Shown one piece after another: positions 1,307 to 23,029 of a stretch of DNA of 23,055 bases (its first letter is position 1; each line of letters starts with the position of its first letter). Under the pieces are notes generated by a model. It had not been told where the DNA came from. It saw only the letters and a list, made by a program, of their open reading frames with translations, and made no database searches. A program made the translations under genes and the position numbers. The stretch comes from a virus: positions 1-23,055 of IMG/VR virus record IMGVR_UViG_3300030099_000598, one strand, 5' to 3'.

Positions 1307-2481
1307 AACGTAACAATGCCTCCTTGCGCGTAAGATATGTTACTTTCCAACTCGCGTCGTGGATCGAACTGTGCGTTCACTGAACGCACTTTATCAGGAC
1401 CTAACGGTATAATTTGTGGTGCTACCCGGCCCATATCCGGCACGTTGTCCATCTCAAGGTAACCGTATCCTTTTTCTTTGGCCGCCCTTAAAATAGCGTC
1501 AATTTGTTCGGGTACATTTAACTCGTCAATATTTATATTAAGCTTTTCCGCCGCTTCCATACGCATTCGTGCGCCAAACGGCCCTGACCTGTCTTCTATT
1601 TTTAAACCCGGTCCTTTGACATACACCGGAATTACATTTGGTTGAGGAGGTGCTTCCAAATTAATAAAACGGTTAGCAAACTTGTTTGCTGTTTCTACGT
1701 CAGGCGTGAGATAAGGTCCAGCGTCATATTGTAGATTAGGGTCACGGTCTATTCCACTTATGTCAGGAAAATCAAACGTGTCCGAAGAAAATTTGTTGTC
1801 AGGCTCAAAGAAAGGTTTTTCTGTGCCGTGGTACAACACTCGATCTGTTTCAAACTTTAGCGCTTTGGCTCGTTCTAATCGGGGAAGCTCAGATATTTGC
1901 TGTATTTTGGCTGCATCCAAAGTATCTGTTCTTTGCTTTACATCTTTTGGAGATTCTTGCAAATCAATTTGACGACCTTCTCCTAGATCTTGCCTAGCTG
2001 GAGCGTCAGCCGGTTTATTCTTAATCTTCTGCTCTAATTTCAAAAGTTTTTCATCAATGTTGTTAGGCGTCATCATGGCTTTACGAGCCACTTTGCCAAA
2101 CTTAGGCACAAACGGAATGCCGCCAGATGCCGATAACACCGCAAGTTGACGCAGCGTGCTGGCTTTTTGAGCATCGCCCGCGTCTTCGGCAGCCAAAGCT
2201 TGACTAATTAAATTGTCTGCATCCATTAACGATTCTGTTTCAGCGATTACAGGAATCATGCCACGTGCAGTAGCGACAGGTTCGTCTTTAGCTACTTGTC
2301 CCATACCTTGCAAAAGGCCACGCGCATCTGCACCCATTGCCATCAAGCCTTGTATTACGTCTGTTCCGGTAGGCAAACCAAACGGACCACTGGTTGGTAT
2401 ACTCTCGGCAACATACTCCATTGTCGTGCCGGGTATCTCACTGAGTCCTTGAAAATATGCGCCAAGCTTAGAGTCAGCCAC
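1303..2481 (-). CDS. Putative virion ADP-ribosyltransferase-like protein
   Basis: A 392-residue protein starting at GTG. The junction is TAGTG, sharing one base with the preceding stop, with GGGAGG five bases upstream. The N-terminal 130 residues have hydrophobic stretches (GLPTGTDVIQGLMAMG), followed by a charged linker at about 140-210. The C-terminal part matches the layout of phage ADP-ribosyltransferases of the polyvalent-protein type. It has YHGT at 217-220, GPYLTPD at 255-261 where the family has a conserved G-x-Y/F-x-T strand, VIPVYVKG at 283-290, GYGYLEMDN at 338-346 with Glu343 as a candidate catalytic acid, and a closing KVRSVNAQFDP at 364-374. Such enzymes move ADP-ribose from NAD+ to host targets, as T4 Alt does after ejection. 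The tail GGIVTL is a common ending in phage virion proteins. Function rests on motif resemblance; activity is unproven. Confidence 0.6.
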   Translation of the reverse strand: MADSKLGAYFQGLSEIPGTTMEYVAESIPTSGPFGLPTGTDVIQGLMAMGADARGLLQGMGQVAKDEPVATARGMIPVIAETESLMDADNLISQALAAEDAGDAQKASTLRQLAVLSASGGIPFVPKFGKVARKAMMTPNNIDEKLLKLEQKIKNKPADAPARQDLGEGRQIDLQESPKDVKQRTDTLDAAKIQQISELPRLERAKALKFETDRVLYHGTEKPFFEPDNKFSSDTFDFPDISGIDRDPNLQYDAGPYLTPDVETANKFANRFINLEAPPQPNVIPVYVKGPGLKIEDRSGPFGARMRMEAAEKLNINIDELNVPEQIDAILRAAKEKGYGYLEMDNVPDMGRVAPQIIPLGPDKVRSVNAQFDPRRELESNISYAQGGIVTL

Positions 2482-4403
2482 TAGCGCCTCCCGTCAGGGC
2501 GCACGTCAACCCGTGGTGTGCCTAGCCGCCACTGTATGTCCGCCGTATTGGAGTCTATTTTTAGCGCAAACGATCTGCCGCGCAGTCGGATATACGTTTC
2601 CTCGGTAAATTGTTCCACGGGCGTTGTGGCGGTCTGCGTGACAGCCGAGGCTTTGTTTTGCAAATAGTTGCCACCGGGATAGTTGCGTGTTTGCAAGGTC
2701 ATGTTGAGGCTTGCAGCCGCATCGGTAGACGCATCAAATGTTACGTCGGGTATTAATCGCGTCAAAAACACAAAGTCATTGCCTTCGCCAATGCTTAGCT
2801 GACTGCTTTCTATAAAACTTGTAATCGGTGAAGCCGGTGACGTGCTGCCATCATTAAGACCAAACTCTTGGTTGTACAGATAGCCGTCAGTACCTGCTGC
2901 CATCGGATAATCGTTAACTCCGCGATCTAACCAAAAAGTACGCACCAAACTACCGTAAGACCAGACTTTTTCTTCGTAATTATAAATCACGTACTTGTCA
3001 ATCTCGGTAGAGTCACTGGACGGGTAAAACCACCAGATCTCACCAAACGAGCTGTTTAGAGCAGCAGTAACCAGTTCTTTTTGTTCTAAGTTAAAATCGT
3101 TAAAAATGTAAGAGCGCACGGTACAAGGCAACTTTTGAACCTGTCCGGTATAGATGTAGAACTCTTCAACGCCCATCCAAAACACCATGTCGTCTACAGC
3201 TTTGGCAGCGATGGGTCCGGCAATGGTAATGTTTTCGGATATTTGATCAATACCAAAAGTAAACGGAGGTCCAAGAAACTGCATGGCGTGTAAAGACACA
3301 TCGGTAAACACTAATATCTGTTGTCTTGTTTCTACTGCACAGACAATTTCTGAACCTACGCCAACTCTTAAATCACCAGCGGTGTTTTCTACGGTAGCGG
3401 TCCACGTAGTCAAAGACTCCTGACTGCTAAAGCGAATTAGCAAAGGATCTTGTACACCGGGATTAGTCTCCGAATCGCAACCAAACACAATTACGTGACG
3501 ATCTCTGTCGCTTACCAGAACTTGTTTGGCAACTGTAGGAGTAGTGGCGTCTGTGCCTAGTGTAGATAAGGCAACAGCTCGATCAGTACCCAGAGTGTTA
3601 GCACTGACATCCCAATAAAATATATTCCCATCACGCACGTTAAAAATAAGATCTTCACCAAAGTTGTCATGCGTGTATACCCGTAGTTCATTAGTGGTCG
3701 TAGAAGTAATTCCTGAACCCCAAGTAGAACGTCCCCAAGTACCTGCACCCCAACCTGTGCCCGCTACTGCCAGCGTTAACCCTGTGTTGATTTGATACGC
3801 GCCAACCACAGAAGCACCACCGTTACCCGTGTCAGCACTGTCAGCTAAAACGAGAGTCGGACTCAGTTGACCGTCTACAGTTATACTTTGTATCGAAGTT
3901 CCCGCAGTACGGGCTTGTATCTTGTAGTTGCTGTCATCAACTATTTCGGTAATCTGGTATTCTTGATTTAGTACAGCAGCAGTAATATTTCCGCCCAGAG
4001 AAACAGCACCGCTAAAAGTAACAAAATCGTTAATAACCGCTCCATGTGCAGCATCCGTAACAGTAAGCACCGCTGACCCGTTGACAGCGGTAAAAGTGAC
4101 ATCACCGGCAGCAGTGGTTACACGCAAGGGCGTAATGTCGTAATACTGGCCGCCTTCGTTGACATAATATTTTTCGGAAGTACCTACACCCGTAAGCTGT
4201 GTGCCACCCAACGTAACCCACGTATGGAGGGCGCGGCACACGCCTAAAAAGCTGTAGACAGAAGTTTTAACCCATCCGCCTATTTTTTCAGGCAAACCAA
4301 AACGAAACCGTACTTTATCCGAGTCAAACCACCCGCCTTCATTAGTATACGACGTAGTTTCCCTGTTTACTCCCGGTCTAAATTGTAACTTCGTTAACGG
4401 CAT
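2481..4403 (-). CDS. Tail hub / packaged-DNA stabilisation protein (P22 gp10-like)
   Basis: A 640-residue protein with the N-terminus KLQFRPGVNRETTSY then EGGWFDSDKVRFRFG, which I recognise from short-tailed phage proteins annotated as stabilisation or tail-hub proteins related to P22 gp10. Beta-propeller-like strands recur at residues 290-515 (DRDRHVIVFG, DDMVFWMGVEEFYIY, EIWWFYPSSD). An Ig-like beta-rich insert occupies about residues 92-190 (VTFTAVNGSAVLTVTDAAHG). A short Trp-Gly repeat (GWGAGTWGRSTWG) follows at 217-229. In P22, gp10 seals the portal/gp4 channel. Here it lies next to the tail-tip genes rather than beside the connectors. The ATG follows the preceding stop directly, and the last codons of that gene supply GGGGAG. 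Confidence 0.65.
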   Translation of the reverse strand: MPLTKLQFRPGVNRETTSYTNEGGWFDSDKVRFRFGLPEKIGGWVKTSVYSFLGVCRALHTWVTLGGTQLTGVGTSEKYYVNEGGQYYDITPLRVTTAAGDVTFTAVNGSAVLTVTDAAHGAVINDFVTFSGAVSLGGNITAAVLNQEYQITEIVDDSNYKIQARTAGTSIQSITVDGQLSPTLVLADSADTGNGGASVVGAYQINTGLTLAVAGTGWGAGTWGRSTWGSGITSTTTNELRVYTHDNFGEDLIFNVRDGNIFYWDVSANTLGTDRAVALSTLGTDATTPTVAKQVLVSDRDRHVIVFGCDSETNPGVQDPLLIRFSSQESLTTWTATVENTAGDLRVGVGSEIVCAVETRQQILVFTDVSLHAMQFLGPPFTFGIDQISENITIAGPIAAKAVDDMVFWMGVEEFYIYTGQVQKLPCTVRSYIFNDFNLEQKELVTAALNSSFGEIWWFYPSSDSTEIDKYVIYNYEEKVWSYGSLVRTFWLDRGVNDYPMAAGTDGYLYNQEFGLNDGSTSPASPITSFIESSQLSIGEGNDFVFLTRLIPDVTFDASTDAAASLNMTLQTRNYPGGNYLQNKASAVTQTATTPVEQFTEETYIRLRGRSFALKIDSNTADIQWRLGTPRVDVRPDGRR

Positions 4404-4905: not shown

Positions 4906-5268
4906 CTACAACGCTTTAATACGATCTATTTCGGCTTGGACTGCATCGGTAAAAGTAGAACTGTATGTGGCGTTAGCGGCATAGCGTACCTTATCCGCCT
5001 CAAGCATTCCTGCTGCGGGGTCTACCCATCCGCTGACATCGCCCCAAGAGCTGCCGTCATAGGTGTGCTTACCACCGACCCATCCATCTGGAGCAGTTAC
5101 GCCCGTATGAAGAGTTGCGTTGCTGGCGTTAAGGTCACCGATGTCAAAATCGTTGCCGCCATTGTTACGCACAGTGGCATTAGGTGTAGCTGAAAGATTG
5201 ACTTGAACGCTGTCGTCAAATACATAAACGCTTACGTTGCCGTCATTTCTTGTAATAGTCTGGCTCAT
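4906..5268 (-). CDS. Small protein downstream of the adhesins; possible fibre accessory
   Basis: I place the start at the ATG at 5268 (MSQTITRND, 120 residues) rather than the in-frame ATG at 5283. The later ATG has GGAG nine bases upstream and lies one base after the stop of the preceding adhesin. The earlier one would overlap that gene and has no visible ribosome-binding site. The protein is beta-rich with a WVGGKHTYDGSSWGDVSGW segment and ends in a helix (DAVQAEIDRIKAL). A small protein ending in such a helix right after tail-fibre genes recalls fibre-assembly chaperones, but I see no specific family signature. Confidence 0.7.
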   Translation of the reverse strand: MSQTITRNDGNVSVYVFDDSVQVNLSATPNATVRNNGGNDFDIGDLNASNATLHTGVTAPDGWVGGKHTYDGSSWGDVSGWVDPAAGMLEADKVRYAANATYSSTFTDAVQAEIDRIKAL

Positions 5269-5269
5269 G

Positions 5270-7834
5270 CTATGAGTCTCCATTTAGTAATAATGATGTT
5301 GTTGAAATTGCTAATCCTGCATTGACGCTAGGGTCACCTGCTGAACTTGAAAAGCCACCAGAAGTGGTGACGTAATATTTGGTTCCTACTGTCAGGGGTA
5401 GATCACCCGCAGTTGTCACTGCACTTTCAGCCGCAGAGTCTCCCGCATTAGCAAAAAGAATTAACCCCTTATCCGCATTGGCATCATACGCTGGAGTGCC
5501 TAGTCCGTAACCAAAAGCTGCATCTAACAAAAGAGTTGAAGCTGAAGACCAAGAAATAGATGTCCCCGAAACGGTTCCGATATATCCGTAATAGTTGGTG
5601 GCTCGACCAAAAGCCACAATAGTCTGGTCGGTAGAGTCGTAATAGTTCGCTGTAAAGTCAGGGTTAATACTTGCGTCAACTACTACTTGGGTTCCAAACG
5701 AAACAGATGTTCCTGAAATGGTAGCTACTTGTGAACCCATACCCCCCGCACCGATTCTGTAGGTTACAACTACTTTTTGTGCGTTTGAATCGTAAGAACC
5801 CCAACCCACTGATAAGGATTGAGTAGTTGTTGCAGAGGTGGCAGAACCCCAACTGACACTTGTTCCTGAAATTGTACCCACATAACCCTCAGCAACCGTT
5901 CCGCTTGTTCTGGGCCTAAAGAACAAATGCTTTTGTGCATTTGCATCGTACGTCAAACCGCCAATCATTTGATAACCCCAAGAACCATCAACTAATACTC
6001 TAGTGCCAAAGCTGATTGAAGTGCCTGACACGGTTCCTACAATGCTGTAGTTATACGCTGTACTATTATCCTTCCATATAATTAAAACCTTTCCTGCATT
6101 GATGTCAAAATCAATACCAATATAAAAATCATTAACCGTACTGTCGGCGACAACAGGAGTACCCCACGAAATAGAAGTTCCTGATACTGTCCCTACCGCA
6201 ACTGTTAAATATCCGCTATTTGCTCCGTCTGAATAAGCTACAACGACACGTTGATTAGTGCTGTCGTAAGTTACTTGACTCATACGTGCATTACCTCCAC
6301 TGTATTGAACGGCAGAGCCGTAGCTTACCGAGGTTCCACTAATTGTAGCGACAATACCGTAACCTGCACCTGAACCTGCACCGTCATAAACGACAACAAC
6401 CTTATTGTTTGTAGAGTCATACACCGAGTCAGCCGCATAAACATCAGCCAAGTTACTTGCCGAATACTGAACAGCAGTTCCCGCAGAAACGCCAGTACCA
6501 CTTGATACGCCTGTCACCGTACCACCCTGCACGATTATGCTACCCGCAGCACTGGCTGATATTGCAGAGTCGGCTACGCCTACGAAATTAGTAGCGTCAA
6601 GATTGGTTCCTTCATAAGAACTTTGATAAGCAATGGCGTAGCATTTAGGAGCAACATCATTAGCCGTGGCGATTACTGTTACTTTTTGATCTTCATCATA
6701 CGCTGCACCAATGTAATCTAAATAATCACTAGACCAATCAGTGGTTGTTGCGTTAAGTGTTGGGGTCGTTCCGCTAATGGTGACATCTCTAGCTTTTCCT
6801 GCCGAACCTGTACTCCACATAATTACATGACTTGCTGATGCTGCGTTGTAAACAGCTTTGATGTAACCTTCGCTACTCCCCGTATTATTAACTTGCGATC
6901 CGCTTGATAAAGTCGTACCCGACAAAGAAAGTACCGCTACTTTTCCTGTATTAGCGGTTGAATCATTAAAGTATTGCAGGGTTTTATCTTGTACAGGATC
7001 ATACGAAACATCAGCGCTTCCATTACAAGGGCCGATACTTAAATAAGTTCCATAAGACCAATTTGTTCCAGAGATAGTCACAGGTACAGAAAACAAAGTA
7101 TTTGCCGATGTTTGTATGGTCGTAATTATTTTTTGAGCAGTTGAGTCATAGGTTATGCCTAAAGGATAGTAATAACTGCCAAAACTAGCAGGACTTCCAG
7201 AACTGAAACCTGTGCCTGAAATGGTATGTACCGTTCCATAAGCACCAACATTGTAGCTATCGTAATAAGCGGTAAAAACCTTACCTGCGTTAGCATCATA
7301 CACAGCTTCAATGTAACTTGCTTTATATGGGTTTCCTCCGTCTATACGACTTGACGTTCCATAAGAAACACTGGTTCCACTAATTGTAGCGACTTTTGCC
7401 TCACCTTGACCGCCAGAGTTTGAATAAGCGACAAAAACTTTATTATTACTAGAATCAAAACAACAAGAAGTCCAAGTTGTAGCGGAGCCTTCAAACACAA
7501 CCGGGGTTCCTACGGATAAAGTAGTACCAGAAACCGTACAAACAACCCCTGTTCCGTAATTAGAATTTCCAGCATCTGCGTAAGCAATAAATATTTTATC
7601 GTTAGCCGTGTCATAGCAAACCGATGCGTAATAACCCTTACCAGTAGAAGCCCCTCCACTAAAATCTATTGCTGAACCTACTGCTATAGGGAGAGTCGTT
7701 GCCCCTACTTCAGCAACCGTCCCATCACTGTTCAGTATCACAGGCTTCTTGGTGGCTATACCGCTACCACTGTCAGTAAAGGTCAGTTGTTTTGCTGCCG
7801 CTCCTGCGGGGAGTAAATCAGATAAATTGCTCAC
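5270..7834 (-). CDS. Adhesin paralogue 3: two seven-repeat beta-propeller arrays
   Basis: An 854-residue protein starting at GTG, which overlaps the stop of the preceding paralogue (GTGA). Residues 1-45 form the module shared by all three adhesins (NLSDLLPAG, KKPVILNSDGTVAEVG). The first array spans about 52-402, with seven Tyr/Phe-Asp-type turns near 74, 125, 178, 229, 277, 328 and 378, separated by (V/I)SGTxxSxG strands. Next comes half of the shared C-terminal module (GTNLDATNFVGVADSAIS, 408-446). A second seven-repeat array spans about 452-803, with turns near 472, 522, 575, 628, 680, 731 and 782. The other half of the C-module (LTVGTKYYV, SAGDPSVNAG) ends the protein. Two seven-bladed propellers, one nested inside the C-module, is the simplest reading. 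Probable role: receptor binding at the tail. Confidence 0.75.
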   Translation of the reverse strand: MSNLSDLLPAGAAAKQLTFTDSGSGIATKKPVILNSDGTVAEVGATTLPIAVGSAIDFSGGASTGKGYYASVCYDTANDKIFIAYADAGNSNYGTGVVCTVSGTTLSVGTPVVFEGSATTWTSCCFDSSNNKVFVAYSNSGGQGEAKVATISGTSVSYGTSSRIDGGNPYKASYIEAVYDANAGKVFTAYYDSYNVGAYGTVHTISGTGFSSGSPASFGSYYYPLGITYDSTAQKIITTIQTSANTLFSVPVTISGTNWSYGTYLSIGPCNGSADVSYDPVQDKTLQYFNDSTANTGKVAVLSLSGTTLSSGSQVNNTGSSEGYIKAVYNAASASHVIMWSTGSAGKARDVTISGTTPTLNATTTDWSSDYLDYIGAAYDEDQKVTVIATANDVAPKCYAIAYQSSYEGTNLDATNFVGVADSAISASAAGSIIVQGGTVTGVSSGTGVSAGTAVQYSASNLADVYAADSVYDSTNNKVVVVYDGAGSGAGYGIVATISGTSVSYGSAVQYSGGNARMSQVTYDSTNQRVVVAYSDGANSGYLTVAVGTVSGTSISWGTPVVADSTVNDFYIGIDFDINAGKVLIIWKDNSTAYNYSIVGTVSGTSISFGTRVLVDGSWGYQMIGGLTYDANAQKHLFFRPRTSGTVAEGYVGTISGTSVSWGSATSATTTQSLSVGWGSYDSNAQKVVVTYRIGAGGMGSQVATISGTSVSFGTQVVVDASINPDFTANYYDSTDQTIVAFGRATNYYGYIGTVSGTSISWSSASTLLLDAAFGYGLGTPAYDANADKGLILFANAGDSAAESAVTTAGDLPLTVGTKYYVTTSGGFSSSAGDPSVNAGLAISTTSLLLNGDS
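5426..6481 (-). repeat. Second seven-repeat array of adhesin 3
   Basis: Seven roughly 50-codon units coding YDx(S/N)xxKVxVxY ... GTVSGTSxSxGT. These units are more uniform than those of the first array in the same gene (for example YDSTNNKVVVVY, YDSTNQRVVVAY and YDSNAQKVVVTY), which suggests younger duplication or homogenisation. Confidence 0.7.
6629..7681 (-). repeat. First seven-repeat array of adhesin 3
   Basis: Seven roughly 50-codon units with the pattern aromatic-Asp turn, beta strand, (V/I)SGT, beta strand. The fifth to seventh units have drifted from the consensus (YDPVQDKTLQYF, YNAASASHVIMW, YDEDQKVTVIAT). Confidence 0.7.
7551..7577. repeat. 27-bp perfect direct repeat, copy in adhesin 3
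   Basis: Identical over 27 bases to 11,365-11,391 in adhesin 1. Both copies encode the end of the first repeat of the first array (DAGNSNYGT). This supports a shared origin or recent exchange between the two genes. Confidence 0.85.
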
Positions 7835-9375
7835 GATGTGTACTCCAAATTAATTGCTGTGGCTGACAGGGCTTTACCCGCTTTAACGCTAGGGTCACCC
7901 GCAGAAGTGCCAAATGTTCCATCTATCTGAACATAGTAATCACTGCCCGGAGTTAGCGAACTTAGACCTGTAGCTGCTATGCCGCCTTTAATTGTTATGT
8001 TTCCGGTGGCTGCGTTTGAGATGGCTGCGTCTGATATGCCGAGGAAGTTAGTTGCGGTGAGGTTTGTTCCGCTTCCTTCTGGGGTGTACACATAAGTCCC
8101 CACTTTATTTGCATCATTCCCATTGCAAGCCATATATACAACAAGGTTTGAGGTTGTATCAAACGTAGCGTCAGTTGTTGCGGCTTGCGAGCTAATACCA
8201 CCGTTAGTCGTATGCGTTCCAGAAAGAACGGGTGTGGTTGTTGAAATTGTAGCCTGTGTTACATATTGGGCCGCATTATCAGCCAAGTAAGAAATAGCAA
8301 AAACTTTTCTAAAAGAATCATAAACAAGGCTGTTCCAATAACGCCCTGCGTATTGATTAGAACTAGCAGCACTTACAAAAGCTATTGGCGTATTTACTGT
8401 TGTCGATCCAGAGCTAGTGCTTACAACTACCAATGAAGTTGTTGCAATACCTGTACCACTGCTTGGACTTACTCCATACATCACTAAGGCTTTTTTCTCA
8501 TCAGCATCCCAAGCCGCTCCTAGACAGTTATTCACAAGCGTTGTCGTAACTATGGTTTGAGGAGTGGTTCCCGTAATTGTTGTTCCTGACACCGTTAATG
8601 CTTGGCAAGCCACGGATGAATTAGCGACTTGATACACTATAAAAAATTGATCTGTAATTGCAGTATCGTACATTAACTGTGCAAAACTGGGATAATTGGT
8701 TATAAGACCACTTGTAAAATAAGCCTCTGAACCAAAACTTAGGGAGCTTGCTCCACCTACTGTGCCAACTTGCATAATCCCCCGATAACTTGTGCCTGTG
8801 TCTACAAATAAAGACGCAATAACAAACTTGTCAGTTCCGGGCCATTCTTCAATTTGGTGGTACAAATAAGTTGTTGTTTGGGAATAAGCCTGAGTCTGAC
8901 CCGCCCAAGAAATTGTGGTATAGGGGCTAGAGCCAAATGTGCCGATTATGCACTGAGCTTGAGAAGAGATTGTATAAATCAATACTAATCTGCCAGTGTT
9001 TGAGTGGTAAATAGCATCAAGCCAATCTACTGCATTACTTGTAATAACAACTGGCGTTCCCCAAGTGATTGAGCCACTTGACATTGTTCCTATAGAATAT
9101 TCTGGGTATGAAGAGGTATTGTTATTTGAGGATATAGCAACAAACCTATCCTCAGTTGACGCATAAACAATCGCATTATAGTTATACTCTGTGGTTGAAG
9201 CCCATATGTCTTGAACATCCGCTATTGCCGCTGACGTAGTAGAACCCGACACTTCGGTAACTGTCCCATCGCTATTCAATATGACAGGCTTACCAGAGCT
9301 GGTGACGTTACCACTGGCGGTGAAACTTACTTGCTTACCTGCACCCGCAGGAAAAAGATCAGAGAGATTCGTCAT
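7831..9375 (-). CDS. Adhesin paralogue 2: single seven-repeat propeller, uninterrupted C-module
   Basis: A 514-residue protein whose ATG overlaps the stop of paralogue 1 (ATGA). It has the shared N-module (NLSDLFPAG, GKPVILNSDGTVTEV). One array runs over about residues 52-432 with seven repeat turns near 70, 122, 175, 235, 288, 351 and 404. The complete C-module follows (GTNLTATNFLGISDAAIS, LTPGSDYYVQIDG, SAGDPSVKAGKALSATAI). Because its C-module is continuous, this copy is the reference against which the insertions in its two sisters show. Its repeats are more divergent from one another than those of paralogue 3. Probable host-recognition protein at the tail; no enzymatic motif is seen. Confidence 0.75.
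   Translation of the reverse strand: MTNLSDLFPAGAGKQVSFTASGNVTSSGKPVILNSDGTVTEVSGSTTSAAIADVQDIWASTTEYNYNAIVYASTEDRFVAISSNNNTSSYPEYSIGTMSSGSITWGTPVVITSNAVDWLDAIYHSNTGRLVLIYTISSQAQCIIGTFGSSPYTTISWAGQTQAYSQTTTYLYHQIEEWPGTDKFVIASLFVDTGTSYRGIMQVGTVGGASSLSFGSEAYFTSGLITNYPSFAQLMYDTAITDQFFIVYQVANSSVACQALTVSGTTITGTTPQTIVTTTLVNNCLGAAWDADEKKALVMYGVSPSSGTGIATTSLVVVSTSSGSTTVNTPIAFVSAASSNQYAGRYWNSLVYDSFRKVFAISYLADNAAQYVTQATISTTTPVLSGTHTTNGGISSQAATTDATFDTTSNLVVYMACNGNDANKVGTYVYTPEGSGTNLTATNFLGISDAAISNAATGNITIKGGIAATGLSSLTPGSDYYVQIDGTFGTSAGDPSVKAGKALSATAINLEYTS
8080..9222 (-). repeat. Seven-repeat array of adhesin 2
   Basis: Seven divergent units of about 50-60 codons. The strand pattern is kept, but the Tyr-Asp turn varies (VYAST, IYHSN, EEWPG, MYDTA, AWDAD, VYDSF, TFDTT). 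The count of seven matches the other adhesin arrays. Confidence 0.6.
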
Positions 9376-11633
9376 CCTGTGTAATCCTTGATATTAATCT
9401 GTGTGGCTGTGATTGCTTTGCCTATAAGATGGTCCGTTGTAAAAGAAGTGGCAGTTGTCGCGTATTGATAGACAGAATCATTTTGCCCTCCAACCACATA
9501 GAGTTTTGTTCCGTCAGAATTAAACGCCATTCCCATTGGCGAGGTATCTTGACCAGCCACAGAAAAACTTACTGAAGCATAGGAAGCGGTAGATACATCA
9601 AAACCACTAGAGAGCGTGTATTGAAAGATAGAATCATTGTCATCTCCTACAATCCACATTGTCGTTCCGTCAGAATTAAATAATAAATCCTGCGGGTTAG
9701 CATCTTGACTCGATATGCTAAAAAGATCGGTAAAAGAAGCACTGGATACATCATATGCACTGGATAAAGCGTACTCATTAACATCATCTCCACCAATCCC
9801 TGTAATAAGCATTACAGTCCCGTCAGTGTTGAAAGCTACTCCGCGAACATCTGCTTCTTGAGCCGCAACACTAAAGTTATGAGTATAGGATGCGGAAGAC
9901 ACGTCAAAAGCCGAACTCAAGGCGTACTGGAGAATGCTAGAGTTATAAGCCTCAGCCACAAACATTATTGTTCCATCAGGTTTAAAAGCAATGCCTGAAG
10001 GGGCTGTTGATTGACTAGCGGTACTAAAACTCTGCGTGAAAGAAGCACTCGAAATATCAAACCCCGTGGATAAGGCATATTCGTGAATTGCGTTAGCTGA
10101 GTTTCCCACGACAAACATTTTTGTCCCATCAGTATTAAACGCTAGGCCAGTTGGGGCTGTATCTTGGGATGATACTGAAAATGCTTGAGTGTAAGTAGGT
10201 GAAGAAATATCGTAAGCAATGTTTGTCGATCCCGCCGCTATTGTTCCATCTGTCTGAACATAGTAATCAGAACCTATCGTCAAACCTGTTTGCACCTCGT
10301 TCCTAGAACCCCAAGTGTTTATCGTGCCTGTCGCTGTGTCGCTTATTGCGCCAGAGGCGATGCCTAAGAGGTTGGTTGAGGTGAGGTTTGTAATGTTGCC
10401 TGATGCTGTGTAAGTACGCATATAGGCGGTCGTGGTAGTGTTGTCCGTAATAGCGAGAATACTTTTATTTGCCACAGGATCAAAGCATTGAGCGCCACTG
10501 TACTGAGCGTTGTTTCCATTATCCGCCGACACTGGAGATGTCCAAGACATCGTTGTTCCGCTCATCGTTCCTTCTACAAGAAATCTATATTGATCTGCCC
10601 CTGCATCTTTTGTGTAAGTCGTAACGTGTTTATTGACTGAAGTGTCAAAACTACCTCTTATCTCATAACCGTATTCGCTTGCAACTACAGCTTCAGTACC
10701 AAAACTTACAGACGTTCCTGAGACAGTGGCTACGATATAATAAACATAGCTACTTACTGAAAGGTTTGTAAAACAAATTGCAATTTTTTCATTTACCGAG
10801 TCATAGGTTGCGCTAGGAGAATTTGGGTTTGTTGTCCAATCGACATGAGTACCAAAACTTACCGAAGTTCCTGAGACAGTGGCTACAGCGGCCCGACCCT
10901 CGTAACCTGTTCGATAAATTATTAAATTTTTGGTGCTTGAAGGATCGTATATGTTGGTTGCAGTAGACATCTCGCGTCCAGTGCTTTCTATTCGCACCAA
11001 TGTTCCAAAGCTAACTGATGTGCCTGAGATTGTCGCAACGCAGCCATAGGGATAATTACTATAACCCCCTCCTTCTGCATAGCTAAAACTTACGACTGAA
11101 GCATTAGCAGAAGCGTTGTAAGCCGCGTGCGTCCGATAACCCTGATAGCTACCTATTTGAGTCGCAGAGCCAAAGCTAATGCTAGTTGATGAAACCGTAC
11201 CTACAATTCCTTTCAGCTGACTGTTTGTATCATCACGAAAAACAACTAAAATTTTACTTTGTGACGCATCATAAGTCGCAGAAATATAATCACAATGCAC
11301 TGTTGCAAAGACTACGGCTGTTCCAAAAGTCAAAGTTGAACCAGACACCGAAACAACACGAGCCGTTCCGTAATTAGAATTTCCAGCATCTCGGTAAAAA
11401 ACAACATCGTTACCACTAGCTGTATCGTGAACTAACGCAGGGTAGTAAGCTCTGTCCGTATCATAATCGGCTGTGCTGCCAAAACTTGCGCTTTGAGCAT
11501 CTTCGCCAACTGCTTTAGCCTTCCCCGCCGCCGTAAGAATGACAGGCGCACCAGAACTGATATTACCGTCAGCTACAAAGTCTGTGTTGTTTTGACCGCC
11601 ACCTGCTGGCAGCAGATCGGCTAAATTCGTCAT
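9372..11633 (-). CDS. Adhesin paralogue 1: seven-repeat array plus five-repeat second array
   Basis: A 753-residue protein whose ATG directly follows the fibre stop. It has the shared N-module (NLADLLPAG, GAPVILTAAGKAKAVG). An array of seven repeats covers about residues 52-408, with turns near 69, 121, 172, 229, 277, 329 and 384. The first part of the C-module follows (NLTSTNLLGIASGAIS, LTIGSDYYVQTDGTI). A different array of five 51-residue repeats comes next (473-727), each with a GxAFNxDGTxMxxVG strand and an (H/Q/N)EYALSS(G/A)(F/Y)D turn, resembling YVTN/NHL-type propellers. The C-module then resumes (LIGKAITATQINI). The five-repeat domain therefore sits in a loop of the C-module. Probable receptor-binding tail protein. 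Confidence 0.75.
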   Translation of the reverse strand: MTNLADLLPAGGGQNNTDFVADGNISSGAPVILTAAGKAKAVGEDAQSASFGSTADYDTDRAYYPALVHDTASGNDVVFYRDAGNSNYGTARVVSVSGSTLTFGTAVVFATVHCDYISATYDASQSKILVVFRDDTNSQLKGIVGTVSSTSISFGSATQIGSYQGYRTHAAYNASANASVVSFSYAEGGGYSNYPYGCVATISGTSVSFGTLVRIESTGREMSTATNIYDPSSTKNLIIYRTGYEGRAAVATVSGTSVSFGTHVDWTTNPNSPSATYDSVNEKIAICFTNLSVSSYVYYIVATVSGTSVSFGTEAVVASEYGYEIRGSFDTSVNKHVTTYTKDAGADQYRFLVEGTMSGTTMSWTSPVSADNGNNAQYSGAQCFDPVANKSILAITDNTTTTAYMRTYTASGNITNLTSTNLLGIASGAISDTATGTINTWGSRNEVQTGLTIGSDYYVQTDGTIAAGSTNIAYDISSPTYTQAFSVSSQDTAPTGLAFNTDGTKMFVVGNSANAIHEYALSTGFDISSASFTQSFSTASQSTAPSGIAFKPDGTIMFVAEAYNSSILQYALSSAFDVSSASYTHNFSVAAQEADVRGVAFNTDGTVMLITGIGGDDVNEYALSSAYDVSSASFTDLFSISSQDANPQDLLFNSDGTTMWIVGDDNDSIFQYTLSSGFDVSTASYASVSFSVAGQDTSPMGMAFNSDGTKLYVVGGQNDSVYQYATTATSFTTDHLIGKAITATQINIKDYTG
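9453..10217 (-). repeat. Five-repeat 51-codon array of adhesin 1
   Basis: Five regular 51-codon units (strand AFNxDGTxM near residues 496, 547, 598, 649 and 701). They are of a different family from the seven-repeat arrays, and the even spacing indicates clean tandem duplication. Confidence 0.75.
10410..11480 (-). repeat. Seven-repeat array of adhesin 1
   Basis: Seven units of about 50 codons. Their SGTSVSFGT strands are near-identical in units 3 to 6, and 17-bp stretches recur in the DNA. Confidence 0.7.
11365..11391. repeat. 27-bp perfect direct repeat, copy in adhesin 1
   Basis: Partner of 7,551-7,577. It lies in the first repeat of adhesin 1 at the matching protein position. Confidence 0.85.
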
Positions 11634-12623
11634 TTATACGCTCCAACCAATGGTTCCATCGATGTAGGTCATAACAATTTCGGTAAAGTTTTTATCAAAC
11701 GTCAGATCAGTAGCTGAACTGGCTATGTTGCTACCGTTTCTGGCTACAGTAAAACTTGTAGTTGCAGCAGCTCCAGTTCCATCCTTAATTGTAATGGTAT
11801 CTCCAGCCGATGGACCAGAAGGCAAGGTGATTGTAATTCCTCCCGCTGTAGCTATGATGTAATCTCTATTGACCGCAGAGTAACTAACTCCTTTCAACAA
11901 AGGAGTTATCGCGCCAGAACCACCGTTAGCAAAAGGTAATACTCCTGTCACGTTAGCAGTAAGATCACAATACTGAACTGCTGTTGATCCTGTACCACCG
12001 TTAGCCGTAGGCAATGTTCCTGTGACGTTTGAAGCTAAGTTACAATAAGCAGTCGCGGTAGAACCTGTTCCTCCATTAGCAGTCGCTAGGGTTCCAGCCA
12101 TAGTGATTGTTCCGCTAGAGGTTATTGGGCCACCACTATAAGTTAACCCCGTAGTTCCTCCAGAAACATCTATAGAAGTAACAGTACCTCCACCAGTTTC
12201 TGTAAAGTTAGCATTAATAACTGCTGCTCCTGCGCCAGCTCCGTCTGCGTAGACATAAGCTTTAGAGCCGTTGGCAATAGTTACTGTACCACCCGAACCC
12301 TGTTTGATTGTAATACTCTGACCGCCAGTGGTAGAGTTCTCAATCATCCAGACCTTGGATACCGTATTAGGGCCAAGAGTAACTTCTCTTGTTGTGGTTA
12401 AAGAAACCGCAGAAGTAATCTTTAAAAACAAGGAGCGGGTAGGATCAGCCGTAGCGTCAGCCATCGTAAAGGTTTCATTGGAATCAGCAGCCATCTGCTT
12501 TGTTCCATAACTAAAAGCATCAGCCACTAACGAAAGGTTCGTGTTGGTAGATGTACCCCACGTTCCGCTTTCATCACCTGTCGCTATTTCTTTTAGTCTT
12601 AAATCATTTGCGTAAGTTGCCAT
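11634..12623 (-). CDS. Tail fibre protein with GGTG repeats
   Basis: A 329-residue protein. The ATG at 12,623 has GAGG upstream (GAGGTATAGAAATG). The N-terminal region (RLKEIATGDESGTWGTSTN, then SLFLKI and GPNTVSKVWMIENSTTG) is a pattern I recognise from marine phage tail fibres and probably anchors it to the tail. Residues 178-237 hold three repeats ending in (L/P)xANGG(T/S)G and containing NVTGxLP, common in trimeric fibre shafts. The C-terminal 60 residues (GDTITIKDGTG, NGSNIASSA, GTIGWSV) form a beta-rich tip seen in other fibres. It comes just before the three adhesins, which suggests that all are parts of one host-recognition apparatus. Confidence 0.75.
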   Translation of the reverse strand: MATYANDLRLKEIATGDESGTWGTSTNTNLSLVADAFSYGTKQMAADSNETFTMADATADPTRSLFLKITSAVSLTTTREVTLGPNTVSKVWMIENSTTGGQSITIKQGSGGTVTIANGSKAYVYADGAGAGAAVINANFTETGGGTVTSIDVSGGTTGLTYSGGPITSSGTITMAGTLATANGGTGSTATAYCNLASNVTGTLPTANGGTGSTAVQYCDLTANVTGVLPFANGGSGAITPLLKGVSYSAVNRDYIIATAGGITITLPSGPSAGDTITIKDGTGAAATTSFTVARNGSNIASSATDLTFDKNFTEIVMTYIDGTIGWSV

Positions 12624-13800: not shown

Positions 13801-14091
13801 TTAAAGCCTCCTAATGTGTTCTGCCAAAGAAGCTTCCCCGGCATTAAGTAAAAGATTATAGATAGTTGTTCGCTCACTTTTTGCAGATTGCTTCATGTAA
13901 TATAAAACAATTTGTTGGATTTGAGATTTGAAAGCTTCTGCTTGTTGCCTTAATACAGGGTCAGCACTTTTAGAGATTGAAATTATTTTATTAGCACAAT
14001 CAACTGAAAGTTCTTCAGGAGTGAAACCGCGATGGTGAGTGGTTTCTACACCGACCTGACCAACGTCAGATTTTATATCAACAGTAAACAT
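13801..14091 (-). CDS. Conserved small helical phage protein
   Basis: A 96-residue protein whose ATG shares a base with the preceding stop (TAATG). The N-terminal 20 residues are beta-type (FTVDIKSDVGQVGVE). The rest is helical: RGFTPEELSVDCANKIISISKSADPVLRQQAEAF split by short turns, then YYMKQSAKSERTTIYNLL and the ending AEHIRRL. The RGFTPEE ... ERTTIYN ... IRRL pattern is widespread in phages, always next to connector genes and without an assigned function. The final RRL codons double as the ribosome-binding site of the next gene. Confidence 0.8.
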   Translation of the reverse strand: MFTVDIKSDVGQVGVETTHHRGFTPEELSVDCANKIISISKSADPVLRQQAEAFKSQIQQIVLYYMKQSAKSERTTIYNLLLNAGEASLAEHIRRL

Positions 14092-14732
14092 TAGATTCTT
14101 ACACTCCTCACAGCTCCTGACCTAAAAGCATCAGTAGTATCGTAACCCTCACCAAGAGATTTAAGTCGAGATACAGCATCCTCATACTTTGCGTTATACC
14201 AATCCATCTGGTCAGCCTCTCCCTTTAGAAAGGTGTAACCCTCAACAAGACAAGCATAGAGCAAAGCGTTTTCAGCATTTGAACCAAGCCAACTCTCACC
14301 GCTTGCTGTGGTAGTTATGGATTCAGGTTCAAACATATAATGAAGCTCAACCGCGTAATTAGCATCAGGTGTTGGACCAATAATAAAACGAGTGTCATCG
14401 AATATGCTGTAATACTTAGGAACACCCTGAGTAGCTTCTACTGGATAAGCCTCACGCATAAAGTTAACGTCTTTAAAAATTAAATATTGATAACCAGTAT
14501 TATCAATCGCTAAAGAATAAGACGCTAAAAATCCATCAGGCATAGTCAGATAGGGATTTCCCTGACTTAGTGTTCCTGTATCATTCCTGCGTAAATCAGG
14601 TATCTGACACGTTCTAAGAATTCTTTGTTCTGCCTGCGTAATAATCGTAGGCAAGTTAGCAACGAAAGTAGTCTCGCTACTTTCTAAATAATCCTGTATA
14701 GCCGTCTTTAATGTCGTAAAAGTAAAAGCCAT
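14091..14732 (-). CDS. Head-tail adaptor/connector protein
   Basis: A 213-residue protein whose start overlaps the preceding stop by one base (TAATG). The pattern is that of podovirus adaptor proteins: helical N-terminus (TLKTAIQDYLESSETTF, LPTIITQAEQRILRTCQ), central beta region (PYLTMPDGFLASYSLAI, RFIIGPTPDANYAVELHY), and C-terminal helices (NAENALLYACLVEGYTFL, WYNAKYEDAVSRLKSLG). This layout recalls the SU10 or P22-type adaptors that sit below the portal. A second connector-like protein lies at 16,467-17,162. Assignment is by recalled similarity and context. Confidence 0.65.
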   Translation of the reverse strand: MAFTFTTLKTAIQDYLESSETTFVANLPTIITQAEQRILRTCQIPDLRRNDTGTLSQGNPYLTMPDGFLASYSLAIDNTGYQYLIFKDVNFMREAYPVEATQGVPKYYSIFDDTRFIIGPTPDANYAVELHYMFEPESITTTASGESWLGSNAENALLYACLVEGYTFLKGEADQMDWYNAKYEDAVSRLKSLGEGYDTTDAFRSGAVRSVRI

Positions 14733-15312: not shown

Positions 15313-16470
15313 TTAAGGCGTATTAGCCTGTCCTCCCATTCCGCTATGATTAGTACAATAATAATGAAGAGTAGGCGCTCCAATAGCTACAGTTATTTGA
15401 GTATAAGCTCCAGCATTACCGGGAACACCTGTGGTAGTTACACCTGTGGTGTACTCCACACCACCTCCCCAAGTTCCATTTGGTGTGGTAGAAAATCTTA
15501 AAGGATGATTAAGGTTGGTGCTGTCAGATTGGTCAAACCTATAAGTAGAACCCTCCACCAGAGAAACAGTAGGACTTACTGCTCCACCTATATAATATTT
15601 ATTACCTGTTCCATAAGAGTTTGTTCCTGTTGCGACCGTAACAGCAAATCCAGTGTATACGTTTACCGTTCCACCCATATTAGAATGATTTTGACAGTAG
15701 TAATATAAGGTAGGAGCATCAGAAGCTACTGTAATTTCTGTGTAAGCTCCTGCTGAACCCGGCACTCCGTTTGTTACCACACCTGTAGTGTACTCAGTCC
15801 CTCCAGAGTGAGTACCATTAGAGGTAGTAGATAAACGAAGAGGATGGTTTAAATTAGAAGAATCAGATTGATCGAATCTGTAAATATTCCCTGCCTTTAA
15901 TGTAACAGTAGCTTGTTGTGCGCCATCTACATAATACCTATTACCAACCCCCGGATTTGCAACGGTTATTGCAAAAGTTTCAGAAACCACACTAACAGAG
16001 CCAACAGCAGAAGTAGCACTTACCCCAGTTACAGATACACTTACATCAACCGCTCCTAATTCAACACTTACGTTTCCTAAATTAGTTGTACCTACAACAC
16101 CCGACACGCTTACTGTCGAATCAGGCTCTGTAATTTCTACTTGGACTCTTCCTACATGTCCTGACATGTCAAGACCAACGGTACGGCTTCCCATTGCTGT
16201 ATTACCACCGCCCACTGGATCAAAAGCCGAAAGCTCTCTGCTTTGAAAAAATCCACCATCGGGACGCGGATTTCTCAAAGCCTGCGGATCAGACATGTTA
16301 ATCATCCCCAATCTCCACTGAGGATTGTCTTTATCTACCACATCTCTACCAACAAGCATTCCGTTGGGTCTGCCGTTCTCTATCTGAGGAACGAGGTCTT
16401 TTAGCTTGTAACGAAAACCTGTTCGGTCACAAAAGCCGAAAGCATGTTTTCCACTAGCGTAATTGCTCAT
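15313..16470 (-). CDS. Virion protein with two tandem cupredoxin-like domains
   Basis: A 385-residue protein whose start overlaps the preceding stop (ATGA). Residues 1-100 form an N-terminal module seen in marine phage structural proteins (HAFGFCDRTGFRYKLKDL, NPQWRLG, DPQALRNPRPDGG). Residues 105-162 hold two of the VSVxGVxATxxVGSVSV repeats also found in the 241-residue protein. Two near-duplicate domains follow (163-272 and 273-384). Each has a His in LNHPLR and a C-terminal YYC-x2-H-x2-M-GG loop, giving candidate type-1 copper ligands His209/Cys259/His262/Met265 and His322/Cys372/His375/Met378. Plastocyanin-type loops are C-x2-H-x4-M, so the Cys-to-Met loop is two residues shorter here. 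Metal binding is unproven, and the domains may be purely structural. Confidence 0.7.
   Translation of the reverse strand: MSNYASGKHAFGFCDRTGFRYKLKDLVPQIENGRPNGMLVGRDVVDKDNPQWRLGMINMSDPQALRNPRPDGGFFQSRELSAFDPVGGGNTAMGSRTVGLDMSGHVGRVQVEITEPDSTVSVSGVVGTTNLGNVSVELGAVDVSVSVTGVSATSAVGSVSVVSETFAITVANPGVGNRYYVDGAQQATVTLKAGNIYRFDQSDSSNLNHPLRLSTTSNGTHSGGTEYTTGVVTNGVPGSAGAYTEITVASDAPTLYYYCQNHSNMGGTVNVYTGFAVTVATGTNSYGTGNKYYIGGAVSPTVSLVEGSTYRFDQSDSTNLNHPLRFSTTPNGTWGGGVEYTTGVTTTGVPGNAGAYTQITVAIGAPTLHYYCTNHSGMGGQANTP
15319..15984 (-). repeat. Tandem duplication of the cupredoxin-like domain
   Basis: Two units of about 110 codons (15,655-15,984 and 15,319-15,654). They share YRFDQSDS(S/T)NLNHPLR, GVEYTTG or GTEYTTG, GVPG(S/N)AGAYT and YYC(Q/T)NHS(N/G)MGG. 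Confidence 0.85.
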
Positions 16471-17162
16471 AGATACTGATAACCGCCGGGAACAACATCG
16501 TAAGATGATTTATCTCTGACTGAATCAGAGGCCATAGTCCACTGCTCTTCATATATTTCTTTAAGCATAGGAATTCTGTTTTCTGCTTGCGGTCTCTTTA
16601 ACGCAATCATGTAAGCTAACCCTGCGGTTAAACAGGTCAAAAAAGTAGGAGGTATGTTCATCTCCAAAGAAGCTGGGGAACCAGCATCTTCAATCCGTTC
16701 CATGTAGTAGTAACCAAATGTCCATGTTTGAGATGAGTCTGGTACAGGCCACACGTTAATCGTTATTCCACTAGGCGCTCTTTCAACCCAGTACTGTATA
16801 GGTCTTCCTTGTAACAGTTTATTAGTTTGTTGAGAATAAGTAGCAATAGACATCCGTTGCATAGTTAGGTCTGACTGTTTTGTAGTGTCGCCTGCGTTTG
16901 TTCGCATGTAGGCTTCAACTATGTCTAACCTGTCAACAGGAAGAGCATAAGCTCCCTGTCCCGGCGTTAATGTCAGGTTATCATTCTTTACCGTCCAAAG
17001 ACTTAAACCCCTGTTCTGCCAATCAAGCATCAAAAGATTAAGGCTTCTTCTCGCTGTCTTATAGTCGTAGCCAGAACGCAACTCTAAACCACAGCGTTCA
17101 TAAGCTTCTTCCATTACCTCGCCCAAATCGAGATTAAAATTATAAGTTCCGCTAGTCGCCAT
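16467..17162 (-). CDS. Head-tail connector, P22 gp4-like tail accessory factor
   Basis: A 231-residue protein whose start shares one base with the preceding stop (TAATG). The N-terminal helices (DLGEVMEEAYERCGLELRSG and TARRSLNLLMLDWQNRG) followed by LSLWTV are the pattern I know from P22 gp4-like tail accessory proteins, which extend the portal. A beta-rich centre follows (GAYALPVDRLDIVEAYMR, PIQYWVERAPSGITINVWP). The C-terminal helix (TFLTCLTAGLAYMIALKRP, LKEIYEEQWTMASD) completes the family layout. Together with the adaptor at 14,091-14,732 this argues for a short-tailed virion. Confidence 0.7.
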   Translation of the reverse strand: MATSGTYNFNLDLGEVMEEAYERCGLELRSGYDYKTARRSLNLLMLDWQNRGLSLWTVKNDNLTLTPGQGAYALPVDRLDIVEAYMRTNAGDTTKQSDLTMQRMSIATYSQQTNKLLQGRPIQYWVERAPSGITINVWPVPDSSQTWTFGYYYMERIEDAGSPASLEMNIPPTFLTCLTAGLAYMIALKRPQAENRIPMLKEIYEEQWTMASDSVRDKSSYDVVPGGYQYL

Positions 17163-19488: not shown

Positions 19489-20427
19489 TTAGGAACTACC
19501 CGGAGAACCGAATATTCCTAATGGGTCAGAGACACCGAAGCTGTAACGCTCTCGCGCCTTGTAGCGCACGTTACCAGTATCGAAATCGCCATCCATCGAA
19601 GTCTCAAGCGGAGTACGCTCGAAATGCTTCATACCATTAGGAACATCAGTAATCAAATAGAAGGAGTTATTGTCAGTCAAATAGTGATTGACAGAATATC
19701 CCTCTGGGATAGAACCGTTGTTCTTAATAGCATTGATGTCGTTGTCAGCGGTGCTAACACGCAATTCAGAATCTAGGATTCTAGTTGCAACAAACATCAG
19801 GTTAGGCGGAACAATCAAGCGTCTTGGTCGAGCAGCGATCAAAAGTCCACGCTCATCTGTGTAAGCAGCGATTTGAATTATCGCATCTTCCAGAGAGGTT
19901 TCGTTTAAATCTGCTGCTGTAGCAGGACGGTTTGAGTTAAAACCACCATTAACTAGAGGGTGACCACCACCACCAACAACGCCATCGCCTACCGCAGTAA
20001 ACAAGTTAACACCATCGCCAGATTGAAAAGCGTTAGTGAAACCATTATTTAATGGGAAAGCAGCTTTAACTTGCTTGGTGTAAGCCATCGCTCTTGCCAA
20101 AGCTTTAGTGTATCGCTGAGACAAAGACGCATAGAGGTTGTCCTCCATTGCTTCTTCAGTAATAGCGAAACCCTGAGCAATAGTTTCATGAGTGTAACGA
20201 GCGGTGAAAGCTTCTTGTGCTGAATCATAATTGATTGCAGAACCTTCAGGCTTCACAGGCGCAGCGCCAAACCCACTCAACTTTACTTCTTCTTCAAACG
20301 AACGATCAGATGTTTCTGTTTCATAGATCATCTTATCTTCGTCTTCGTACTTTGCATACTCTAAGCCAAACAGGGCGTTAAGACCCGGAAGTAGCTCTTT
20401 GAGCATTTGCGCTCTTGATATAGCCAT
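19489..20427 (-). CDS. Major capsid protein (HK97-type fold)
   Basis: A 312-residue protein. The ATG at 20,427 has AGGAGG nine bases upstream. The sequence follows the widespread Mu gpT-related/HK97-fold capsid family: LLPGLNALFGLEYAKY at the start, FEEEVKLSGFGAAPVKPEG, ARYTHETIAQGFAITEEAME, GLLIAARPRRLIVPPNL, STADNDINAI, VNHYLTD, VPNGMKHFERTP and a closing ARERYSFGVSDPLGIFGSPG. There is no visible prohead-protease cleavage site or long delta domain at the N-terminus, so assembly probably relies on the separate scaffold-like gene. It forms the icosahedral shell. The strong ribosome-binding site and the following terminator fit the most abundant virion protein. Confidence 0.92.
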   Translation of the reverse strand: MAISRAQMLKELLPGLNALFGLEYAKYEDEDKMIYETETSDRSFEEEVKLSGFGAAPVKPEGSAINYDSAQEAFTARYTHETIAQGFAITEEAMEDNLYASLSQRYTKALARAMAYTKQVKAAFPLNNGFTNAFQSGDGVNLFTAVGDGVVGGGGHPLVNGGFNSNRPATAADLNETSLEDAIIQIAAYTDERGLLIAARPRRLIVPPNLMFVATRILDSELRVSTADNDINAIKNNGSIPEGYSVNHYLTDNNSFYLITDVPNGMKHFERTPLETSMDGDFDTGNVRYKARERYSFGVSDPLGIFGSPGSS

Positions 20428-22634: not shown

Positions 22635-23029
22635 ACCTTCATCACTCCTCTAGGGTCTTCGACCACAGCTTCTACACTGTCGTCATTGATGAGCCTGAAC
22701 TCTTTGCCATGCACCTTAAAGCGTGTGCCAGAGTACGACCTCATCATAATGAAATCACCCTCTTTGCAATAAGCGCCGCTAGGAAACCGTGACTTATCAC
22801 TATAAGCGTCTGGGCCTAACTTGATAACAAAGCCAATTATGGAGCCTACCTCTTCCGCCTCAATAGTTTCTTGGGCTTTGAGAATACCTCCTTCACTGGC
22901 TTCTTCAGGTTCGGGAAGATTTATCAAAATCTTGTACCCTTTCGGGTCAGGTAGTTTATGAGCTGCACGAGGTTTTTTCGCAGTATCCTCTTCGGATACC
23001 GTATCTACTTCTGCTAATGCTTCTGCCAT
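22631..23029 (-). CDS. Virus-encoded GroES-like co-chaperonin
   Basis: A 132-residue protein; ATG with AAGGA upstream. After a 25-residue acidic extension absent from bacterial GroES, the Cpn10 pattern follows. It has GYKILINLPEP (strand 1), a mobile-loop-like EASEGGILK near 43-51 with the GGI/L triplet that contacts GroEL, VGSIIGFVIKLGPDAYSD, CKEGDFIMMRSYSGTRFKV and EFRLINDDSVEAVVEDP. By analogy with T4 gp31, it probably replaces host GroES on host GroEL to fold the phage capsid protein. Its place just before scaffold and capsid genes agrees. No GroEL gene is in the window. Confidence 0.85.
   Translation of the reverse strand: MAEALAEVDTVSEEDTAKKPRAAHKLPDPKGYKILINLPEPEEASEGGILKAQETIEAEEVGSIIGFVIKLGPDAYSDKSRFPSGAYCKEGDFIMMRSYSGTRFKVHGKEFRLINDDSVEAVVEDPRGVMKV

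What the first reader, a model, noticed from the sequence alone, without database searches (positions are those of the whole stretch)
5270..11633. Three tandem paralogous adhesins, each built on exactly seven repeats
Counting the aromatic-Asp turn motifs gives seven in the array of adhesin 1 (753 aa), seven in adhesin 2 (514 aa), and seven plus seven in adhesin 3 (854 aa). Repeat length is about 50 residues with four strand-like segments. A constant seven despite strong divergence implies selection for a closed seven-bladed beta-propeller. Seen: the counts, the shared N- and C-modules and the overlapping gene starts. Inferred: the fold and the receptor-binding role. A triple propeller adhesin set in one tail would be an uncommon host-recognition design.
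Basis: partly seen in the sequence, partly recalled or inferred. Interest (0 to 1): 0.7.

Follow-up and report, generated by a model that had tools for sequence, protein, structure and literature searches.

The report
Swappable propeller adhesins of marine phages
An uncultured marine virus of bacteria carries three neighbouring genes for surface-binding proteins; each is a small conserved holder into which ring-shaped binding heads are plugged, and related viruses swap these heads as whole units while one face of them changes fast, as expected of a part that grips varying host cells.

Summary
The counts hold: 7 repeats in A1's first array, 7 in A2, 7+7 in A3. Seven is nearly invariant: 138 of 146 N-to-C-module spans in relatives estimate to 7, with one clear six. 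The second repeat type is always five (26/26). AlphaFold models of A1 and A3 give closed seven-bladed propellers; best solved matches are seven-bladed lectins and YncE (Z 29-33). A2 was not modelled.

The shared N and C modules form one ~110-residue carrier domain. It also occurs empty (94% nucleotide identity on both sides of the missing propeller). Propellers sit in three of its loops and are exchanged whole: nucleotide identity runs 91% / 46% / 86% across A3 versus its relative.

Carrier ends track gene position (8 changes versus 56 shuffled); propellers do not (60). Exactly three genes is usual (25 of 38 bounded clusters), so the design is common among uncultured marine phages.

In near-identical-blade arrays, differences concentrate at six top-face positions, amino-acid-changing at about twice the silent rate; window A3 shows the same concentration (p=1e-5). 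Receptor binding is likely but unproven. New variant of propeller-type receptor-binding proteins.

The parts
9372..11633 (-). Gene 1 (A1, 753 aa): carrier with a 7-bladed propeller at site 1 and a 5-repeat array at site 3
11496..11633 (-). A1 carrier N-module (residues 1-46)
   Evidence: shared and position-specific ends
10383..11495 (-). A1 first array: seven blades (residues ~47-417)
   Evidence: model pLDDT about 93; BP39L lectin Z 32.8, 319 aligned, rmsd 2.7
9435..10211 (-). A1 second array: five YVTN/SGL-type repeats (residues ~475-733), inserted in carrier site 3
   Evidence: fold not resolved by the model
7831..9375 (-). Gene 2 (A2, 514 aa): carrier with one 7-bladed array
   Evidence: not modelled
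8086..9225 (-). A2 array: seven blades (residues ~51-430)
   Evidence: blade-profile hits
5270..7834 (-). Gene 3 (A3, 854 aa): carrier with two 7-bladed propellers, at sites 1 and 2
6602..7690 (-). A3 first array: seven blades (residues ~49-411)
   Evidence: YncE Z 32.0
5399..6496 (-). A3 second array: seven blades (residues ~447-812); replaced by a different 7-blade array in L002
   Evidence: (PHL lectin Z 29.5 on residues 459-811)
4906..5283 (-). Small gene, one per cluster, chaperone-like (W-G-x-K-x-x-x-D-G-x-x-W type motif); follows gene 3 here, lies between genes 1 and 2 in the other lineage
   Evidence: function inferred by likeness to tail-fibre assembly proteins, no profile match
11634..12623 (-). 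Tail-fibre-like gene directly upstream (329 aa), candidate shaft
   Evidence: phrog_31104 1.5e-20 (no known function) and phrog_972 tail fibre proximal subunit 3.3e-07; 60-73% identical and adjacent in many relatives
2481..4403 (-). P22-gp10-type tail stabilization/hub protein, marks the tail module
   Evidence: phrog_3287 1.1e-62

Best explanation
A1-A3 are three position-locked subunits of the host-recognition end of a short-tailed marine phage. Each is a small beta-rich carrier domain (~110 residues, weakly like phage cement proteins) whose loops take self-contained propeller cassettes: a seven-bladed propeller at site 1, a second seven-bladed propeller at site 2 (A3), and a five-repeat array at site 3 (A1). 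The carrier ends fix the protein's place in the virion; the propellers point outward and bind host-surface glycans or proteins with the face formed by the DA and BC loops. Recognition evolves on two levels: replacement of whole cassettes by recombination within the carrier, and rapid amino-acid change at about six top-face positions per blade. Blade number is held at seven (or five) because ring closure needs it. Shown: counts, closed seven-blade models for A1 and A3, carrier with and without insert, cassette replacement, position-locked ends, top-face diversification. Inferred: presence at the tail tip, receptor binding, hetero-assembly of the three.
For: Fold; split first/last blade. Constancy of 7 and of 5. 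Carrier as a separate domain: empty carriers L080, L104, L105, L122; L080 empty versus L117 gene 2, 94% nt identity on both sides of a 377-residue insert. Insert sites. Cassette exchange: window A3 versus L002 gene 3 nt identity 0.91 / 0.46 / 0.86; L002 gene 1 versus L004 gene 3 0.43 / 0.93 / 0.46; window A1 versus L046 0.86 / 0.45 / 0.90. Ends track gene position, arrays do not: 8 and 60 changes versus about 56 shuffled. Three genes usual. Diversifying selection: held-out halves give pN 0.48-0.50 against pS 0.24-0.30 at the six positions, pN 0.05-0.07 elsewhere; third codon positions 0.25 and 0.26. Window A3 array 1 versus L002: 12 of 39 top-face sites differ, 16 of 286 others, p=1.3e-5; the only A3 difference from sibling contig L001 is at blade position 4. 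Tail context.
Against: No virion proteomics, ligand or mutant was found for any member. The carrier's weak likeness to capsid cement proteins leaves the capsid possible. Carrier and five-repeat array are not resolved in the models, and A2 was not modelled. The array tree is poorly resolved, so absence of a gene-position signal there partly reflects saturation. pN/pS comes from 17 arrays of relatives, not from the window's own blades, which are too diverged; in the window-versus-L002 pair pN (0.19) does not exceed pS (0.27), so that pair shows concentration but not excess of change.
Confidence: 0.75

Rival explanations
1. Capsid decoration: the carriers are cement-like proteins on the head that display propellers for weak, general adhesion to cells or particles.
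For: Carrier matches Phage_cement_2 in 12 of 18 sequences scanned, best E 3.6e-6, most of the 18 being joined N+C constructs; natural empty carrier L122 E 0.014 along its length; weak near-full-length match to a capsid stabilization protein, 8qsy, E 0.15.
Against: Genes lie between a fibre-like gene and the tail hub gene, not beside the capsid gene; the unit occurs at the C-terminus of tail-fibre proteins (L081, phrog_38058 4.6e-27) and an empty carrier follows an Mtd N-terminal domain (L104, 8.8e-14); a tail-fibre-chaperone-like gene accompanies most sets.
Confidence: 0.13
2. Polysaccharide-cleaving propellers (glycosidase or lyase) acting as depolymerases rather than plain receptor binders.
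For: Seven-bladed fold also matches virginiamycin B lyase and a glycoside hydrolase.
Against: No Pfam or PHROG enzyme match to the 7-blade arrays; nearly invariant residues are mostly Gly, Ser, Thr, Val, Asp and Tyr of the repeat itself; the usual ligand face is the most variable part.
Confidence: 0.08
3. Top-face variation is made by targeted mutagenesis (a diversity-generating retroelement), not by selection alone.
For: Codons at the variable positions often keep the third base while bases 1-2 vary, e.g. G-N-T at position 26.
Against: Third-base change is the same there as elsewhere, 0.25 versus 0.26; no reverse transcriptase in 27 records, though most are fragments.
Confidence: 0.07
4. Open solenoid: repeats stack without closing, and seven is inherited rather than selected.
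For: All arrays may descend from one seven-repeat ancestor.
Against: Models close; first and last half-blades complement each other; arrays with near-identical blades, so recently homogenised or re-amplified, still have seven in 16 of 17; the second repeat type has a different fixed number, five.
Confidence: 0.03

Closest known systems
Receptor-binding protein of Staphylococcus phage phi11
   Same: Phage receptor-binding protein with a beta-propeller domain as presumed glycan binder (PMC4901313)
   Different: One five-bladed propeller per homotrimer subunit on a helical stem; here seven-bladed, in three paralogous proteins, inserted into loops of a small carrier
phiKZ gp131C
   Same: Seven-bladed propeller in a phage tail, suspected of receptor binding (PMC4901313)
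   Different: Single protein of a Pseudomonas myophage; sequence not compared here
PLL / PHL / BP39L seven-bladed lectins
   Same: Among the best fold matches, Z 28-33, about 306-320 residues, rmsd 2.4-3.0, tied with YncE
   Different: Bacterial lectins; no sequence match to the arrays; sugar sites not tested
Podospora HNWD NOD-like receptors
   Same: Near-identical propeller repeats with a few hypervariable sites under diversifying selection (PMC12222747)
   Different: Fungal intracellular receptors with WD40 repeats
Lentibacter phage vB_LenP_ICBM2 gp49 and gp51
   Same: Cultured phage with the carrier plus 7-blade-type array (gp49) and the 5-repeat array (gp51)
   Different: Not three tandem carriers; gp51 lacks the carrier; each is followed by its own gene annotated as tail assembly chaperone; both annotated as hypothetical

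Membership tests
Seven-bladed beta-propeller fold | Seven four-stranded blades | tested here: met
   Counts and strands per blade in models for A1 and A3; A2 by count only
Seven-bladed beta-propeller fold | Closed ring, matching solved seven-bladed structures | tested here: met
   (predicted models of A1 and A3, not experiments)
PLL/PHL/BP39L lectin family | Sequence similarity to the family | tested here: not met
   No match to PDB sequences with two profiles
PLL/PHL/BP39L lectin family | Conserved sugar-binding residues between blades | not tested
   -
Phage receptor-binding / tail-fibre proteins | Linkage to tail-fibre parts | tested here: met
   Unit fused to fibre region and Mtd_N in relatives; gene context
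Phage receptor-binding / tail-fibre proteins | Binds host receptor, determines host range | not testable with these tools
   Only indirect: diversifying selection on one face
Phage_cement_2 / DUF2190-like domain (carrier) | Curated profile score | tested here: inconclusive
   Natural carrier L122 below cut-off (16.2 versus 24 bits); best E 3.6e-6 in a mixed set containing joined constructs
YVTN/SGL-type propeller (five-repeat array) | Profile match | tested here: met
   PF08450 39.3 bits versus cut-off 26.3; PF10282 29.8 versus 21.7; 1l0q E 1.9e-9
YVTN/SGL-type propeller (five-repeat array) | Six or seven blades closing one ring | tested here: not met
   Always five repeats, 26 of 26; fold unresolved
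Diversity-generating retroelement target | Reverse transcriptase in the same genome | tested here: inconclusive
   None in 27 records, most of them fragments

The most novel reading that the evidence does not exclude
Three position-locked carriers assemble into one hetero-oligomeric tail tip that displays four or five different swappable propellers at once: a modular multi-receptor head that evolves by whole-cassette exchange and by blade-level diversification with homogenised blade cores, a phage counterpart of the repeat-based recognition receptors of fungi.
Probability: 0.4. Interest if true: 0.75.

Novelty: new variant of a known kind. Interest (0 to 1): 0.62.

Why it matters
It gives fold, anatomy and a likely mode of evolution to a large, unannotated family of marine phage proteins (at least 482 hits in one capped scan; the 7-blade arrays themselves have no meaningful Pfam or PHROG match). 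It names the residues that probably contact the host. The natural pairs of filled and empty carriers, and of the same propeller in different carriers, are ready-made material to test how phages change receptors by swapping whole binding heads.

Tried and rejected
Pfam, PHROG and PDB sequence searches with the 7-blade arrays: nothing convincing. A first automatic repeat count mixed weak leading half-blades and merged two arrays; replaced by the motif-to-motif span. Retroelement idea: the fixed third bases looked suggestive, but third-base change equals background and no reverse transcriptase was found. Three apparent 'five-blade' spans were motif hits inside arrays. The five-repeat array and the carrier could not be modelled with confidence. 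Literature searches found no description of this family, but only openly licensed papers are held.

Full report
WHAT IS THERE. The window is a 23 kb uncultured virus record whose minus strand carries the structural genes of a short-tailed phage: capsid protein at 19489-20427, two adaptor-type proteins, a fibre-like gene, the three genes in question, and a P22-gp10-type tail hub protein. Its capsid protein is 72% identical to that of a Planktothrix phage and 59-63% to those of Pelagibacter phages. Genes A1, A2 and A3 overlap by 4 nt each.

COUNTS. Blade-profile hits give 7 in A1's first array, 7 in A2 and 7+7 in A3. In relatives, the distance from the N-module motif to the C-module motif, which needs no repeat detection, is tightly unimodal at seven blades: 138 of 146. 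True sixes are rare (L105; second array of L064 gene 3), and L105's near-identical repeats may be collapsed by assembly. A 2350-residue relative has 28 = 4 x 7. The second repeat type is five in 26 of 26 proteins. Two repeat kinds with two different fixed numbers in the same proteins argue for ring closure rather than inheritance alone.

FOLD. The A1 and A3 models show closed seven-bladed propellers (array pLDDT about 93 in A1; about 90 and 78 in A3). The best solved structures are seven-bladed: BP39L lectin Z 32.8 (319 residues, rmsd 2.7), YncE 31-32, PLL/PHL lectins 28-32; these are partly tied, so the fold is shown but not the family. Each array starts with the outer strand that its last blade lacks, the classical closure. 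A2 was not modelled.

CARRIER. The N and C modules are one domain of about 110 residues. In L080, L104, L105 and L122 they are contiguous with no array. L080's empty carrier matches L117 gene 2 at 94% nucleotide identity on both sides of a 377-residue propeller insert. Inserts occupy three loops: before 'NLTxxNFIG' (site 1), before 'LTxGxxYYVQ' (site 2) and after 'YYVQTDGTI' (site 3). The carrier resembles phage cement domains weakly.

CASSETTE EXCHANGE. Nucleotide identity between window A3 and L002 gene 3 is 0.91 over the N end and first propeller, 0.46 over the second propeller, 0.86 over the C end. L002 gene 1 and L004 gene 3 share only the second propeller (0.93), in carriers at 0.43-0.46. 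Window A1 and L046 share the N end and five-repeat array but not the propeller between. Across 117 proteins of three-gene sets, carrier ends follow gene position (8 label changes against 56 shuffled) while first propellers do not (60 against 56). The careful carrier tree gives 11 changes. The array tree is poorly resolved, so the pairwise mosaics are the stronger evidence.

THREE GENES. Of 38 bounded, deduplicated clusters, 25 have three carriers, 5 two, 8 one, none more. One small chaperone-like gene goes with most sets.

DIVERSIFICATION. In 17 arrays with near-identical 52-residue blades, differences between blades of one array fall mainly at positions 4, 6, 7, 24, 26 and 30. In the models these lie just before or at the start of strand A, at the end of B, in the BC loop and just before C, all on the top face (face assigned from the strand order, as no coordinates were at hand). 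Choosing positions in half the loci and testing in the other half gives pN 0.48-0.50 against pS 0.24-0.30; elsewhere pN is 0.05-0.07. Third codon positions do not differ (0.25, 0.26), and no reverse transcriptase was found, so selection is favoured over targeted mutation. The window's own A3 shows the same concentration against L002 (12/39 versus 16/286, p=1.3e-5), and its single difference from sibling contig L001 is at position 4.

ROLE. Relatives carry the unit at the C-terminus of tail-fibre proteins (L081), and L104's empty carrier follows an Mtd N-terminal domain. With the diversifying face and the lectin-like fold, receptor binding at the tail tip is the best reading, at about 0.75. That the three proteins form one hetero-oligomer is inference from their position-locked ends.

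NOVELTY. Propellers in phage receptor-binding proteins are known (phi11, PRD1 P2, phiKZ gp131C; PMC4901313), and repeat propellers with hypervariable sites are known in fungi (PMC12222747). The plug-in carrier, whole-cassette exchange, three position-locked paralogues and fixed seven/five counts were not found described together (openly licensed literature only).

Noticed in passing
window 9435-10211: Five YVTN/SGL-type repeats, always five in relatives, while profile relatives (SGL, lactonase, 1l0q) are known as six- or seven-bladed rings (own knowledge); whether five close alone, or pair with another chain, is open.
   Followed up: partly
window 14091-14732 and 16467-17162: Two divergent SU10-adaptor-like genes (PF24175, 1.1e-23 and 3.4e-12). 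A doubled fibre-attachment ring protein is described for phage PhiGT1 (PMC10386132), whose authors suggest it could impose three-fold symmetry; possibly linked to the three adhesin genes.
   Followed up: no
window 22631-23029: Phage-encoded GroES-like co-chaperonin (phrog_3188, 1.3e-12).
   Followed up: no
window 15313-16470; L124 5035-12084: Two copies of a domain with a 'YYCxNHSxMGG' motif (cupredoxin-like; Pfam Copper-bind only E 0.13); the same domain is at the N-terminus of the giant 28-blade protein of L124.
   Followed up: no
L124 5035-12084: A 2350-residue fibre-like protein in a contig binned as a Euryarchaeota MAG with four carriers, each holding a seven-blade array (28 blades).
   Followed up: partly
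L030 5794-10551; L125: Long proteins with irregular blade hits (5 and 6, or scattered), not explained.
   Followed up: no
L105 5980-7260; L064 8206-10650: Apparent six-blade arrays; assembly collapse of near-identical repeats not excluded, at least for L105.
   Followed up: partly
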